A DNA stretch of 64,000 nucleotides from a virus, in IMG/VR virus record IMGVR_UViG_3300034020_000824, positions 82,031 through 146,030 of that record. The stretch is one strand, 5' to 3'. Numbering within the stretch: the stretch's first letter is position 1; each line of letters opens with the position of its first letter. The notes under the pieces are model-generated. The model searched no databases. It was not told where the DNA came from and saw nothing but the letters and a program-made list of their open reading frames with translations. This document shows, one piece after another, positions 3,237 through 8,534 of this stretch. The position numbers were made by a program, and so were the translations under genes.

Positions 3237-4025
3237 ATGAACTATCTAAAGCATTATTGCAATCTTATCAGGAAAGTAGAGAACAGAACTCCACCTGAAG
3301 GTTATACAGAAAAGCATCATACATTTCCAAAAAGTATCTTTGGAAATAATAAAAGGATTGTAGTTCTAACATCAAGGGAACATTATATCGCTCACGCTTT
3401 ATTGGAAAAGATTTATATTAAGAGGTGTGGAATTAAGGATAAAAAAACTACTAAAATGATTCACGCTCATATTTTAATGAAATCAAAAGGTAGATATTAT
3501 AATTCTCATCTTTATGGAATCGCAAGAATTAGAATGTCCGAATCAAAGAAAGGTAAAAAACCATATGTTATGACTGAGGAAACTAGAAATAAAATGAGTA
3601 TATCTAAAAGTGGAGAAAATCATCCAAAATATGGAATACCCTTAACTCAAGAACATAGAAATAAATTATTAGATTCTTGGAAAGGAAAAATTCATAGTGA
3701 AGAATCTAAGTTAAAAATAAGTGAAGCAAATAAAGGCAGAATTCACACAGAAGAAACCAAGAAAAAATGGAGTGAAGCAAGAAGTGGGGAAAAGCATTAT
3801 CTTTATGGAAAGAAACGAGATATTGAAATTGTAAATAAAATAGTGGAGAAGAAAAGTAAAGAATTTTCAATTATAAATCCTCAGGGTGAAATTATTTGTG
3901 GGAAAAATATTACTAAATTTTGTAAAGAAAATAATTTAGATGTTGGAACTACTTGGAATCTTCTTAATTATAAAAGGAATACGAAATCACATAAAGGTTA
4001 TCGTGCTGTTCCTCAACAAAGTTGA
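3237..4025 (+). CDS. HNH homing endonuclease with NUMOD3 repeats
   Basis: A 262-residue freestanding endonuclease. The N-terminus carries an HNH-like core (EKHHTFPKS followed by REHYIAHALL, residues about 25-60). The middle has three or four NUMOD3-type DNA-binding repeats (TEETRNKMSISKSG and similar, about 113-190). The C-terminus looks like a helix-turn-helix domain (ITKFCKENNLDVGTTWNLL). It is inserted between gp43 and uvsX, a typical intergenic site for mobile endonuclease genes in T4-like phages. It has its own late promoter, and its stop codon lies inside the -35 box of the uvsX promoter. The target is unknown; neighbouring gp43 or uvsX DNA of related phages is the likeliest. Confidence 0.9.
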   Translation: MNYLKHYCNLIRKVENRTPPEGYTEKHHTFPKSIFGNNKRIVVLTSREHYIAHALLEKIYIKRCGIKDKKTTKMIHAHILMKSKGRYYNSHLYGIARIRMSESKKGKKPYVMTEETRNKMSISKSGENHPKYGIPLTQEHRNKLLDSWKGKIHSEESKLKISEANKGRIHTEETKKKWSEARSGEKHYLYGKKRDIEIVNKIVEKKSKEFSIINPQGEIICGKNITKFCKENNLDVGTTWNLLNYKRNTKSHKGYRAVPQQS

Positions 4026-5087: not shown

Positions 5088-5629
5088 AAAATATTCGTAT
5101 AATAAAAACTAATGTAAATGTTTCTAAAATATTAGAACAACTTAAGCAATATCCTGAAGACTGGGGTTCTCAAAAAAATATTGAAGACTCCGAACAACTA
5201 GACCCCACAGAATATACTGTTACTGTGGATGTGTTGCAACTTATAATGGGTGGAGTTGAAAAAGAGAACCAATATGTCGGGAATACTGAAATATGTATTA
5301 AAACCCCGGCATATGAAAAACATACGGAGATTCTTAATTACTTGGGAAAGTATTTTAAGAAACTCCGTCGTTGTGGATTCTTGGCACTTCCAGTCGGTGA
5401 AATTGTGGGTTCTCATATTGACGAAGGAACTTATTATCTTACGAAGGATAGATATCACCTTTCCATTCAGGGAAAATACGAGTATACTGTTGGGGATGAA
5501 ACTACAACTATTGAACCGGGAACACTATTTTGGTTCAATAATAAACTACCCCATAAGGCAGTTAATATTGGCGACAACATTAGAATTACTTTTGTATTCG
5601 ATGTTCCGCATCATAAACGAAATCTTTAA
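5084..5629 (+). CDS. 2OG-Fe(II) oxygenase (Asp/Asn beta-hydroxylase-like)
   Basis: A 181-residue protein with a double-stranded beta-helix oxygenase core: iron ligands H111, D113 and H157 (in LPHKAV), plus R167 as the likely 2-oxoglutarate contact. The order HxD, RYHLSIQG, EPGTLFWFNN, PHKAV, R fits the aspartyl/asparaginyl hydroxylase family. Such oxygenases are common in cyanophages, but their substrates are unknown. It is coupled to uvsX by an ATGA overlap, suggesting expression with the replication genes. The substrate could be a protein side chain or a nucleotide; the sequence does not decide. Confidence 0.85.
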   Translation: MKNIRIIKTNVNVSKILEQLKQYPEDWGSQKNIEDSEQLDPTEYTVTVDVLQLIMGGVEKENQYVGNTEICIKTPAYEKHTEILNYLGKYFKKLRRCGFLALPVGEIVGSHIDEGTYYLTKDRYHLSIQGKYEYTVGDETTTIEPGTLFWFNNKLPHKAVNIGDNIRITFVFDVPHHKRNL

Positions 5630-5637
5630 TTAAAATA

Positions 5638-6270
5638 ATGGAACGACTTGAACTTACAATCCTTAGAAACTTAGTATTTAATGAAGACTATGCCAGAAAG
5701 GTTATTCCTTTTATTCAACCGGAGTACTATGAGCAAAGAGTAGAAAAGATAGTTTTTGAGGAAATTGTTGAGTTCATCGTTAAGTATGGTTCTTCAATTA
5801 CAATAGAAGCACTCAATATTGAGATTGATAATCGTAGAGATTTGACAGAATCTGAAAATAAGGAAATAGTAGAATTACTTTCTAAACTTAATGATAGTCC
5901 TGTGGATAAGCAGTGGATACTGGATACTACCGAAAAGTGGTGCCGTGACCGTGCTATTTACTTGGCACTCATGGAGTCCATTCATATTGCCGATGGTAAG
6001 GATGATAAAAAAGGTAGAGATGCCATTCCCAGTATTCTTTCCGATGCCTTGGCAGTATCTTTTGATAATAATATAGGTCACGATTATCTTCAGAATTATG
6101 AGGAACGATATGAGTTTTATCATCGTAAAGAAGATAAGATTGAATTTGACCTAGAATATTTCAACAAAATCACAAAAGGTGGATTACCTAATAAGACTCT
6201 GAATATTGCTCTTGCCGGTTGCGTTCATCCAGAAACTATAGTTAAAATTAGATTTAGGAAGATTTCTTGA
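5638..6270 (+). CDS. 41: gp41 replicative helicase, N-terminal half fused to short N-intein
   Basis: A 210-residue protein. Residues 1-194 are the N-extein: the DnaB/gp41-type N-terminal domain up to the start of the Walker A loop (LNIALAG). Residues 195-210 (6220-6267) are an intein N-fragment beginning with the catalytic Cys1 (CVHPETIVKIRFRKIS), then a stop. The missing remainder is encoded from 6955. Protein trans-splicing would recreate the P-loop AGTGVGKS. The 3' end overlaps the antisense endonuclease gene by 17 bp. The N-fragment is only 16 residues, far shorter than classic split inteins. Confidence 0.93.
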   Translation: MERLELTILRNLVFNEDYARKVIPFIQPEYYEQRVEKIVFEEIVEFIVKYGSSITIEALNIEIDNRRDLTESENKEIVELLSKLNDSPVDKQWILDTTEKWCRDRAIYLALMESIHIADGKDDKKGRDAIPSILSDALAVSFDNNIGHDYLQNYEERYEFYHRKEDKIEFDLEYFNKITKGGLPNKTLNIALAGCVHPETIVKIRFRKIS

Positions 6271-6922
6271 TTTTGGAGTTTGGTGCTGGTTCTCCAGTTC
6301 CAAACTTCCAACCTTCATTTAGTTTTATATCAACTTCTTCTGGTGATATTCTTTTCCATCCCTTTGTTCCGGGCAAATGCATTACCTTTTTTCCTTTATG
6401 CGCCTTTCCCCCTAATGATGATCGTGTTTTTCTTCCTTCATTAGATGCCCAATAACTAAATTCTTTTGACCCCATCTTCTTTCCTCCAAGAGATGCCCTT
6501 TCTTTTCTTCCCTCTTCGGTGCTCCAATAGTAAAAATTTTTTGTTTGATTTGTTAAGTAATCTTGTTTTTGACTTTCTATTCCTTTTATTGTCCATTTTT
6601 TTCTTTCATTTGATGGAATGGAAAAAATACCAATATTATTGTCACGACAAAATTCTCCTGTTATTTTTCTATATTGTGGAGATAAGTTTGCTCCCAACAT
6701 TTTCATAGACCTTAAATCATTTGGATTTTTATATATCTTCCACAACAAATAATGTGCCAATATATGTTCTCTAACATTTAAATATGTTAGATTAAAATCT
6801 TCATCACTTCCCCCCATATGTTTGGGAATAATATGATGTTCGTGTAACCCAGAATATTTTTTATAGTTTTCTTTTCTTGACTTATTGCCTTCACATAAGT
6901 TAGAATAGATTTGATTAAACAT
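6254..6922 (-). CDS. HNH homing endonuclease antisense between the gp41 halves
   Basis: A 222-residue endonuclease encoded opposite to gp41. The HNH core reads LHEHHIIPKHMGGSDEDFN with following REHILAHYLLWKIY. Two copies of a YWSTEEGRKERASLGGK-like repeat and a C-terminal GWKRISPEE/GWKFGTG segment are probable DNA-binding modules. I chose ATG 6922 because it follows a GGGA ribosome-binding site and a reverse TATAAATA box at 6943-6950; an upstream in-frame ATG at 6976 would lie beyond that promoter. It probably targets the intein-less gp41 allele and is the mobile element that splits the gene. Confidence 0.92.
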   Translation of the reverse strand: MFNQIYSNLCEGNKSRKENYKKYSGLHEHHIIPKHMGGSDEDFNLTYLNVREHILAHYLLWKIYKNPNDLRSMKMLGANLSPQYRKITGEFCRDNNIGIFSIPSNERKKWTIKGIESQKQDYLTNQTKNFYYWSTEEGRKERASLGGKKMGSKEFSYWASNEGRKTRSSLGGKAHKGKKVMHLPGTKGWKRISPEEVDIKLNEGWKFGTGEPAPNSKIKKSS

Positions 6923-6942
6923 TTCCCTGTCCCTGCTAATGG

Positions 6943-6950
6943 TATTTATA
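6943..6950 (-). promoter_or_regulatory. Late promoter of antisense endonuclease gene
   Basis: TATAAATA read on the minus strand, 21 nt upstream of the endonuclease ATG at 6922. It lies only 5 nt before the start codon of the gp41 C-half on the plus strand, so the two divergent genes share a very small regulatory space. Confidence 0.7.
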
Positions 6951-6954
6951 CAAA

Positions 6955-8127
6955 ATGTGGATTGAAAAAGAAACATCGATTGCTGAAATCAAAACATTAC
7001 TTGATAATGGATATGAAGTGGAGGTTGATTCTCCCGATGGATATGTTCCTGTTAATTTTTTTATTAATAAGGGGATGTATGAAGAATATGAATTGCTTAT
7101 GATGGGGGGTAATAAAGTTAGTTGTAATGAGTCCCATTTGTTTGAAACTACTGAAGGTTGGATTTCCGCTAAAGAAATGGAACAATCTAACTTAATATAC
7201 AAATTGATTACTAACGAGGGTATTAAAATTGGTCGGGTTTATAAAAACAATAAACAAATACCTATTGTAGATATTAATGTAAATCATCCAAATCATAGAT
7301 ATTACACTAATGGAGTTTCCTCTCACAATACTGGAGTTGGAAAATCTCTCTTTATGTGTCACGTTGCCAGTTCTGCCTTACTACAGAATAGAAATGTTCT
7401 TTATATTACTCTTGAAATGGCAGAAGAAAGAATTGCCGAAAGAATTGATGCGAATCTTCTTAATGTTCCAATTCAACAACTGATTGATTTACCACGCTCA
7501 GCATTTGAGAATAAAGTAAATGGTATTTCCAAGAAGACTCGGGGTTCTTTGGTAATCAAAGAATATCCTACTGCTTCGGCACACTCCGGGCACTTCAAGG
7601 CACTTCTGAATGAACTTGCTCTGAAGAAATCATTTAGACCTGATATTATCTTTATTGACTATTTGAATATTTGCTCCTCCTCACGATTTAAGAGTGGTAG
7701 TAATATCAATTCTTATACTTTGGTTAAGTCTATTGCCGAAGAACTTCGTGGTTTGGCAGTAGAGTTTAATGTTCCTATTATGAGTGCGACACAGACGACT
7801 AGGAGCGGTTTTGGTTCTTCCGATGTAGAATTGACCGATACTTCTGAATCGTTCGGTCTTCCTGCTACTGCCGACCTTATGTTTGCTCTGATTAGTACCG
7901 AGGAATTAGAAGGTCTAGGGCAGATTATGGTGAAGCAACTTAAAAACAGATATAATGACCCAACAATCTTTAAGCGTTTCGTTGTTGGAATTGACCGTGC
8001 CAAAATGAGACTTTATGATGTAGAACAGTCCGCACAAAACGACATACTTGACAGCGGTAAAGAAGAGGAGTATAATAATGAAGAAAATAAACCAAAAAAA
8101 TCATTTGAGGGATTTAAATTTTCATGA
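6955..8127 (+). CDS. 41: gp41 helicase C-terminal half preceded by C-intein
   Basis: A 390-residue protein. Residues 1-125 are the large intein C-fragment: block B-like CNESHLF, then DINVNHPNHRYYTNG and the terminal HN of VSSHN. The C-extein starts at Thr126 (codon 7330): TGVGKSLFMCHV, followed by the gp41 motor domain with FIDYL (Walker B) and SATQTTRSG. Extein lengths (194 + 265 = 459) match T4 gp41 (475). An in-frame TAA at 6937 rules out translation through from the N-half. No strong ribosome-binding site is visible. Splicing with the N-half would give a functional replicative helicase. Confidence 0.95.
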   Translation: MWIEKETSIAEIKTLLDNGYEVEVDSPDGYVPVNFFINKGMYEEYELLMMGGNKVSCNESHLFETTEGWISAKEMEQSNLIYKLITNEGIKIGRVYKNNKQIPIVDINVNHPNHRYYTNGVSSHNTGVGKSLFMCHVASSALLQNRNVLYITLEMAEERIAERIDANLLNVPIQQLIDLPRSAFENKVNGISKKTRGSLVIKEYPTASAHSGHFKALLNELALKKSFRPDIIFIDYLNICSSSRFKSGSNINSYTLVKSIAEELRGLAVEFNVPIMSATQTTRSGFGSSDVELTDTSESFGLPATADLMFALISTEELEGLGQIMVKQLKNRYNDPTIFKRFVVGIDRAKMRLYDVEQSAQNDILDSGKEEEYNNEENKPKKSFEGFKFS

Positions 8128-8534
8128 CACAACGAGTTGATTTTAATAAGTATCAGAACTTCGTAGATGCCGTAACTTCTGATGCATCCAAAGATTTCCT
8201 TGCTCTTTCTGACCGTATGGTTCAGTTGGATGAGAAAGGTGCTAATATTGAGCGTCTTCTGACTGCCTCTGTGGGAATTAATGCCGAGGGTGGTGAGTTT
8301 TTAGAAATAGTCAAGAAAATGGTCTTTCAAGGTAAGTCTTGGAATGATGAGACCCGTACTCACTTGATTAAGGAACTGGGTGATACGATGTGGTATGTGG
8401 CACAAGCGTGTATTGCTCTTGATGTCTCTTTTGATGAAGTAATTCAGACTAATATTGATAAACTGATGAAGCGTTATCCAGACGGATTTTTTGACGCATA
8501 CTATAGTGAAAATCGTGAAGATGGAGACATTTGA
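8124..8534 (+). CDS. mazG: MazG-like nucleotide pyrophosphohydrolase
   Basis: A 136-residue all-alpha NTP pyrophosphatase. The metal-binding pattern is E55-G-G-E58 (EGGEF) and E84-L-G-D87 (KELGDTMWY). MazG enzymes hydrolyse NTPs or dNTPs to monophosphates; in cyanophages they have been linked to host (p)ppGpp or nucleotide-pool control. The gene overlaps gp41-C by 4 nt and the next small ORF by ATGA, so it belongs to the replication operon. Confidence 0.88.
   Translation: MTQRVDFNKYQNFVDAVTSDASKDFLALSDRMVQLDEKGANIERLLTASVGINAEGGEFLEIVKKMVFQGKSWNDETRTHLIKELGDTMWYVAQACIALDVSFDEVIQTNIDKLMKRYPDGFFDAYYSENREDGDI

What the first reader, a model, noticed from the sequence alone, without database searches (positions are those of the whole stretch)
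5638..8127. gp41 helicase fractured by an atypically split intein with an antisense homing endonuclease gene
The N-half ends with a 16-residue intein N-fragment starting at Cys1. The C-half starts with a 125-residue C-fragment ending HN, and its first extein residue is Thr. Joining the exteins recreates the Walker A loop AGTGVGKS. An HNH gene lies antisense between them and overlaps the N-half by 17 bp. Stops in between exclude read-through. Fractured gp41 genes with split inteins are known from marine metagenomes, and short N-fragments from atypical split inteins such as AceL-TerL; a 16-residue N-fragment with a reversed endonuclease gene is a striking arrangement.
Basis: partly seen in the sequence, partly recalled or inferred. 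Interest (0 to 1): 0.93.

Follow-up and report, generated by a model that had tools for sequence, protein, structure and literature searches.

The report
Phage helicase gene split by intein
A cyanophage replicative helicase is encoded in two pieces that most likely join themselves by protein trans-splicing, with the gene of a probable DNA-cutting mobile-element enzyme lying backwards between them; relatives suggest that the splicing element jumps between phages and can stay split after the enzyme gene decays.

Summary
gp41 helicase is broken at the Walker A loop: the N-half ends in a 16-residue intein N-fragment (C1), the C-half begins with a 125-residue C-fragment (HN|T+1), and an HNH gene lies antisense between them. 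The joined exteins give 459 aa, identical in 395 of 460 columns to the uninterrupted gp41 of Synechococcus phage S-SRM01. VidaL sits in a UvsX-like gene with a sense ORF between its halves, so this is a new variant of a known kind.

Among 111 records (window plus 110 relatives) 101 hold both intein ends: 8 contiguous, 93 split. Of the split, 74 have a complete antisense HNH, 8 antisense remnants, 1 a sense HNH-like ORF, 10 none (one of these has a sense GIY-YIG). A T4-type late promoter motif precedes the HNH in 63 of 74. Some alleles have lost the HNH but stay split, keeping a scar, and near-identical intein-HNH modules sit in diverged helicases. The window's HNH probably starts at 6922, not 6976. 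Trans-splicing and DNA cleavage are inferred, not tested.

The parts
5638..6219 (+). gp41 helicase N-extein (194 aa), ends ...NIALAG at the first part of the Walker A loop
   Evidence: PHROG_19 DnaB-like helicase E=5.6e-42; collinear with S-SRM01 gp41
6220..6270 (+). intein N-fragment CVHPETIVKIRFRKIS (16 aa) and stop codon
   Evidence: match to VidaL 48.1 bits without and 58.1 bits with this fragment joined
6254..6922 (-). HNH homing endonuclease gene, 222 aa from the conserved start (longest ORF 6254-6976, 240 aa); its stop codon lies inside the intein N-fragment
   Evidence: PHROG_655 homing endonuclease E=7e-15; no Pfam hit for the window protein itself but 12 of 21 aligned members match Pfam HNH PF01844; conserved H, N, H residues; HNH stop inside the N-half ORF in 52 of 74 loci
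6943..6950 (-). TATAAATA, T4-type late promoter motif for the HNH gene; the only copy on either strand of 5638-8127
   Evidence: within 70 nt upstream of the HNH start in 63 of 74 loci (background 0.008 per 70 nt)
6955..7329 (+). intein C-fragment, 125 aa, MWIEKETS...VSSHN
   Evidence: PDB match VidaL 6vgv E=1.5e-11; model of the contiguous relative L062 matches 6vgv, TM 0.88, rmsd 1.4
7330..8127 (+). gp41 helicase C-extein (265 aa), T+1, starts TGVGKS = second part of Walker A
   Evidence: Pfam DnaB_C E=3.7e-16; PHROG_19 E=1.2e-81

Best explanation
gp41 is made as two polypeptides, each carrying part of a class-1 intein split after strand beta-2 (VidaL type). The 16- and 125-residue fragments associate, C1 attacks at the AG|C junction, T+1 takes over the acyl group, the terminal Asn cyclises, and a 459-residue helicase with an intact Walker A loop (AGTGVGKS) is released. 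SHOWN by sequence: all parts, conserved catalytic residues, purifying selection, fold of a contiguous relative. INFERRED: the reaction. The HNH gene between the halves is a separate antisense transcription unit with a TATAAATA late promoter motif; its product probably cuts element-free gp41 alleles in co-infecting phages, so that repair copies in intein plus HNH (homing). SHOWN: near-identical intein-HNH modules in diverged gp41 genes, with identity dropping at or soon after the intein ends, and uninterrupted alleles. INFERRED: late expression, cutting and the cut site. The HNH cassette interrupts the intein at the split point and can be lost later while the intein stays split (shown as alleles).
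For: Anatomy. VidaL is the best PDB hit by sequence and by structure, and the split falls at the same point (our RKIS|MWIEKE, VidaL KKG|MIEEKK). Conservation: C1 101/101, HN and T+1 111/111, N-x-x-H 111/111; median dN/dS 0.27 (IntC), 0.13 (HNH), 0.11 (C-extein), pairs not independent. Uninterrupted alleles: S-SRM01; 79 of 80 loci. Mobility: window against L002, third-position identity 57 and 58 in the exteins, 97 in IntC; L054 against L046, 90-nt windows of the N-extein 49-84%, of IntN-HNH-IntC 93-100%, dropping to 67% some 65-155 nt beyond the intein; L195 against L190, gp41 exteins 60-88%, module 97-100%. Late promoter motif: 63 of 74. Loss of HNH without re-fusion: L170 and L177 against L195, exteins 94-97% at third positions and IntC 100%, 34-nt spacer that keeps the HNH 3' end and the promoter relic (shown for L170).
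Against: No biochemical data. In the window and most HNH-bearing relatives the C-half has no Shine-Dalgarno-like sequence (18 of the 69 loci whose HNH matches the profile end to end have one), so how it is translated is unclear. The HNH cut site is unknown and the fold search of the HNH model was inconclusive. The HNH cassette also moves without the intein (L013 against L002: cassette windows 97-100%, IntC 71-92%), so it need not home on the empty gp41 site. Loci were fetched by intein similarity, which inflates the intein-extein asymmetry in the pair count.
Confidence: 0.88

Rival explanations
1. Genes in pieces without splicing: the HNH insertion broke gp41 and the halves assemble non-covalently, as reported for the nrdA of phage Aeh1.
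For: Such a case is known (Aeh1 nrdA split by mobE; PMC3653736, passages).
Against: The class-1 splicing residues are kept in all records examined, the break lies inside the Walker A loop, the contiguous relatives L062, L075 and L148 keep the same residues, and IntC is under purifying selection.
Confidence: 0.04
2. The HNH cassette is a nested parasite that homes into the intein itself rather than into empty gp41, and the intein spreads by other recombination.
For: HNH2 cassette 99.7% identical between L013 and L002 although IntN is 90.5% and IntC 84.5% identical; L013 and L014 have near-identical inteins but different HNH genes; contiguous, HNH-free inteins exist as possible targets; HNH reading frames end inside IntN at the same offset in 45 of 74.
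Against: In L054/L046 and L195/L190 intein and HNH are near-identical together in diverged gp41 genes. Gene conversion between two intein-bearing phages would also explain the cassette swaps.
Confidence: 0.2
3. The contiguous inteins (L062-L067) are the ancestral state into which the HNH was inserted, rather than re-fused descendants.
For: Uninterrupted reading frame; contiguous forms also occur elsewhere on the tree (L075, L148).
Against: L062, L063 and L067 lie in a clade with split, HNH-bearing inteins (SH-aLRT 97), and the L062 junction equals the left edge ATTTCTTG of L054 joined to its GTGGATTGAA, as a deletion would leave. The tree is poorly resolved, so the direction stays open.
Confidence: 0.35
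4. Assembly error or decayed gene.
For: The records are metagenomic assemblies.
Against: Identical 2490-bp locus in three further records, and the same architecture in 74 of 93 split records, with purifying selection.
Confidence: 0.01

Closest known systems
VidaL split intein (PDB 6vgv, 6vgw); loci L084-L087
   Same: Natural split intein with a 16-aa IntN, split after beta-2, Cys1, Walker A insertion in a T4-type phage gene, an ORF between the halves in L084, and copies with only a 58-nt spacer (L086)
   Different: VidaL sits in a UvsX-like recombinase (PHROG_97), not gp41; +1 residue Ser, not Thr; about 30% identity; the 373-codon ORF between its halves in L084 is on the sense strand and has no recognised function (PHROG_22677)
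Fractured genes with split inteins and a free-standing endonuclease (Dassa et al. 2009; paper not held; content recalled)
   Same: Conserved phage enzyme broken by a split intein with an endonuclease gene in between
   Different: As I recall, those are mostly canonical splits; here the split is atypical and the endonuclease is an antisense HNH with its own late promoter motif. Whether antisense cases are among them I could not check
gp41-1 split intein
   Same: Same host gene, gp41, in T4-like phages
   Different: Other insertion site (TRSG[Y/F]|SSSDVE or SNSDV), canonical split with an 88-aa IntN. Five fetched contigs (L026, L049, L056, L071, L219) carry it, or in L219 a more distant relative, together with a VidaL-type insertion bearing an HNH gene or part of one
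PolB split intein with HNH gene in Pseudomonas phage MIJ3
   Same: HNH gene between two halves of a split-intein polymerase (PMC6892783, passages)
   Different: All three genes are on one strand
Free-standing mob/seg endonucleases of T4
   Same: Include HNH endonucleases; some T4 endonucleases use late promoters, and segD is antisense to its neighbours (PMC2988022, passages)
   Different: Here the endonuclease gene sits inside an intein and splits a gene

Membership tests
Atypically split intein, VidaL type | Hint/intein fold | tested here: met
   Contiguous relative L062 modelled with pLDDT 95.5; top PDB hit 6vgv, TM 0.88. The window's own two-piece form was not modelled.
Atypically split intein, VidaL type | Short IntN (about 15-37 aa) with the split just after beta-2 | tested here: met
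   16 aa; in 93 split records 14-23 aa, 52 of them 16; alignment places the split as in VidaL; the model has strand 7-13, split point 16|17
Atypically split intein, VidaL type | Class-1 catalytic residues (C1, block-B His, His-Asn, C/S/T+1) | tested here: met
Atypically split intein, VidaL type | Trans-splicing activity | not testable with these tools
   needs co-expression
Fractured gene (definition recalled from Dassa 2009) | Conserved enzyme gene broken by a split intein with a free-standing endonuclease gene between the halves | tested here: met
HNH homing endonuclease | Conserved HNH motif and intact reading frame | tested here: met
   the window member alone gives no Pfam hit
HNH homing endonuclease | Close structural match to a solved HNH nuclease | tested here: inconclusive
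   Model pTM 0.52; best hits are HNH-containing Cascade subunits at E=0.24 and above
HNH homing endonuclease | Cuts the element-free allele | not testable with these tools
   needs a cleavage assay; the transfer pattern fits
Genes-in-pieces enzyme without splicing (Aeh1 nrdA) | No splicing element at the break | tested here: not met
   complete intein at the break
Group I intron or other known RNA element | Rfam match in 5600-8200 | tested here: not met
   no match up to E=0.1

The most novel reading that the evidence does not exclude
The antisense HNH cassette is a parasite of the intein: it inserts at one fixed point in a contiguous intein, borrows the intein's antisense codons for its stop, brings a late promoter, and so turns a cis-intein into a split one; when it dies the intein stays split. 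If so, endonuclease invasion and decay is a route by which endonuclease-free natural split inteins arise, and these phages hold the stages as alleles, including helicases built from three polypeptides by two different split inteins.
Probability: 0.4. Interest if true: 0.75.

Novelty: new variant of a known kind. Interest (0 to 1): 0.6.

Why it matters
It supplies a natural allele series for one intein site: empty, contiguous, split with a complete endonuclease gene, split with a decaying one, split with only a scar. That makes the idea that split inteins are made by endonuclease insertion directly testable. The family also offers dozens of natural split inteins with 14-23 residue N-fragments, the size wanted for attaching synthetic peptides to proteins, and cases in which one enzyme gene carries two different split inteins.

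Tried and rejected
Rejected: group I intron or other RNA element (no match); assembly error; a second gp41 in the own record or in the larger matching record. The HNH fold search was uninformative. The ORF between the VidaL halves in L084 looked Vsr-like to me by recalled motif, but a PDB sequence search, Pfam and PHROGs (unknown function) did not confirm it. The sense ORF in L072 has no Pfam or PHROG hit; it is called HNH-like because the window HNH matches it at 41% over residues 41-167. Promoter-like sites were 20 against 14.5 (sd 3.4) in shuffles and terminator-like 1 against 2.1; one is a perfect sigma-70 match at 8048-8076. The direction contiguous-to-split or the reverse could not be settled. 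Dassa 2009, Burton 2020 and two other cited papers are not held, so whether an antisense endonuclease in a split intein has been printed before is not known to me; the listings of searches, and passages of the held papers opened, showed none.

Rows dropped and limits: each intein scan kept only the best 80 of 113, 105 and 145 relatives. Loci that repeat contigs already held were left out of the census; L001 (own record), the VidaL loci L084-L087, the phage-record loci and the uninterrupted loci L229-L308 were not counted; 10 of the 111 census records lack the IntN side. The identity analysis used 86 records with enough flank, 68 after removal of near-copies. Five HNH2 loci that the script labelled 'partial' I count as complete because L002, L013, L033 and L039 have an open frame of 232 codons and L003 shows the same 232-codon frame. 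The HNH profile was built from 22 of the loci themselves.

Full report
1. What is there. The window is 64,000 bases of a 146,030-base IMG/VR virus record. Its first 24 kb are closest to cyanophage records, best Synechococcus phage S-SRM01 (35% covered, 79% identity), which is classed in Kyanoviridae. Around the finding the gene order is gp43 polymerase, a free-standing endonuclease gene, uvsX, a cupin-like gene, gp41, mazG. S-SRM01 has polymerase, two small hypothetical genes, recombinase, a hypothetical gene, helicase and pyrophosphatase in the same order, without the endonuclease genes. gp41 is in two pieces with the coordinates given in 'parts'. The spliced product would be 459 aa, the length of S-SRM01 gp41, and matches it in 395 of 460 columns with no gap at the junction.

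2. The intein. Sequence search of the PDB puts VidaL first (E=1.5e-11, 48.1 bits for IntC alone; 58.1 bits when the 16-aa IntN is joined). Ankyrin-repeat proteins lower in the same list match a stretch of about 50 residues and I take them as spurious. A model of the contiguous relative L062 (pLDDT 95.5) matches VidaL 6vgv at TM 0.88, rmsd 1.4. Passages of PMC13014065 say that VidaL has a 16-aa IntN, is split after beta-2 and splices in about a minute. So the short fragment is not new. I located VidaL genes in IMG/VR: L084 has the 100% match, and its halves flank the Walker A loop of a UvsX-like recombinase (PHROG_97; AGESG|CLPKEAVVQIRLTKKG, then HN|SGKS), with a 373-codon sense ORF of unknown function between; L086 has a 58-nt spacer instead.

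3. Census. Three scans with intein queries, each capped at 80 loci, gave, after removal of repeats, 110 loci plus the window. 101 hold both intein ends. 8 are contiguous (L062-L067, L075, L148). 93 are split, with IntN of 14-23 aa, 52 of them 16. Of the 93, 74 have a complete antisense HNH: 69 match a family profile over at least 150 positions (identity to the window 42-100%), and 5 (HNH2) match it in two blocks. 8 have antisense remnants, 1 (L072) has a sense HNH-like ORF, and 10 have none; of those ten, L151 carries a sense GIY-YIG/NUMOD3 ORF. So 82 of 83 HNH genes or remnants in split inteins are antisense. The records are not independent samples.

4. The HNH unit. The conserved protein starts at the 19th codon of the window ORF (6922). 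Upstream lie GGGACAGGGA and then TATAAATA (6943-6950), the only copy on either strand of the locus. The motif is within 70 nt of the HNH start in 63 of 74 complete cases (three without a recognised start counted as misses) against 0.008 expected per 70 nt. In T4, late promoters drive some endonucleases (PMC2988022, passages), and T4 late promoters were sought in cyanophages with TATAAAT (PMC3037559, passage). In 52 of 74 the HNH stop codon lies inside the N-half ORF, in 45 at the same offset.

5. Mobility. Nucleotide profiles show near-identical modules in diverged genes: L054/L046, N-extein windows 49-84%, IntN to IntC 93-100%, 96 and 93% just past the intein and then 81 and 67%, later C-extein windows 67-94%; L195/L190, gp41 exteins 60-88%, module 97-100% where both have it. 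Window against L002 is 57 and 58% at third positions in the exteins and 97% in IntC. Over 2278 pairs of 68 non-redundant loci IntC exceeds both exteins by 20 points in 342 and falls below both by 20 in none, but the loci were chosen by intein similarity. The HNH cassette can also change alone: L013 and L014 share intein (99.7-100%) and C-extein (100%) but have different HNH types (spacer 67%), while L013 and L002 share a 99.7% cassette in inteins 84.5-90.5% identical.

6. Decay. L195 (complete HNH), L190 (387-nt spacer), L180 (169 nt) and L170 (34 nt) have nearly the same intein, and the shorter spacers are different deletions of the same cassette; L170 keeps the HNH 3' end and the TTATTTATA promoter relic. 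Only L170 and L177 share the gp41 background of L195 (exteins 94-97% at third positions, IntC 100%); L190 and L180 sit in diverged gp41 genes (L190 against L195 48 and 57%; L180 against L170 55 and 55%), so this is not a single-lineage series. These inteins remain split. L059 and L061 keep the left edge of the HNH cassette as a scar. On a poorly resolved tree of IntC, presence of a complete endonuclease among split inteins needs at least 10 changes and contiguity 4, and shuffled labels do about as well on the first. L046 (HNH, split) and L062 (contiguous) are close alleles (86 and 92% in exteins, 98% in IntC); whether L062 is the pre-insertion state or a re-fusion is open.

7. Selection. C1 is kept in 101 of 101, HN and T+1 in 111 of 111, N-x-x-H in 111 of 111. 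Median dN/dS is 0.27 for IntC, 0.13 for HNH and 0.11 for the C-extein, with non-independent pairs.

8. Judgement. Trans-splicing is strongly implied but untested. The finding is a new variant of the fractured-gene, VidaL-type split intein; its value lies in the allele series and in the antisense endonuclease with a late promoter motif. An unexplained point is that most HNH-bearing C-halves lack a Shine-Dalgarno-like sequence (present in 18 of the 69 loci with an end-to-end HNH match, against 9 of 10 split loci without HNH).

Noticed in passing
L049, L056, L219 (both sites held); L026, L071 (IntN side of site 1 not held); L023 (C side of site 2 not held): gp41 carries a second, gp41-1-type split intein after TRSG[Y/F] (L049 IntN matches PDB 6riz/6qaz at E about 1e-51; in L219 a more distant one whose halves lie in different frames), so the helicase is encoded in three pieces needing two different split inteins; L049 has a sense homing-endonuclease ORF (PHROG_314, also GIY-YIG PHROG_5123) at the second site.
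   Followed up: partly
L032 3662-4228, L040 3451-4224, L051 1984-2820, L026 3670-4014: Long spacers carry a sense ORF sharing a motif like IYDIILSHLLDEGYAETPEAAEAIMVNMSEEWR; the same ORF type is found at the second intein site of L026. The L032 ORF matches only PHROGs of unknown function.
   Followed up: partly
window 3237-4025 (+): Free-standing NUMOD3 homing endonuclease gene between gp43 and uvsX, absent at that place in S-SRM01.
   Followed up: no
window 6925-6955: The C-half start has no Shine-Dalgarno-like sequence; in some HNH-free split alleles (L007, L023, L059) the AGGAA inside IntN lies just upstream of the C-half start and may serve.
   Followed up: partly
window 8048-8076 (+): Perfect sigma-70 consensus (TTGACA-17-TATAAT) at the end of gp41, upstream of mazG.
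   Followed up: no
L010 1696-1911, L045 1768-1980, L170 2098-2310: Further weak intein-like matches (31-39% to the gp41-1 IntN) about 1-2 kb upstream of gp41, possibly in uvsX or a neighbour.
   Followed up: no
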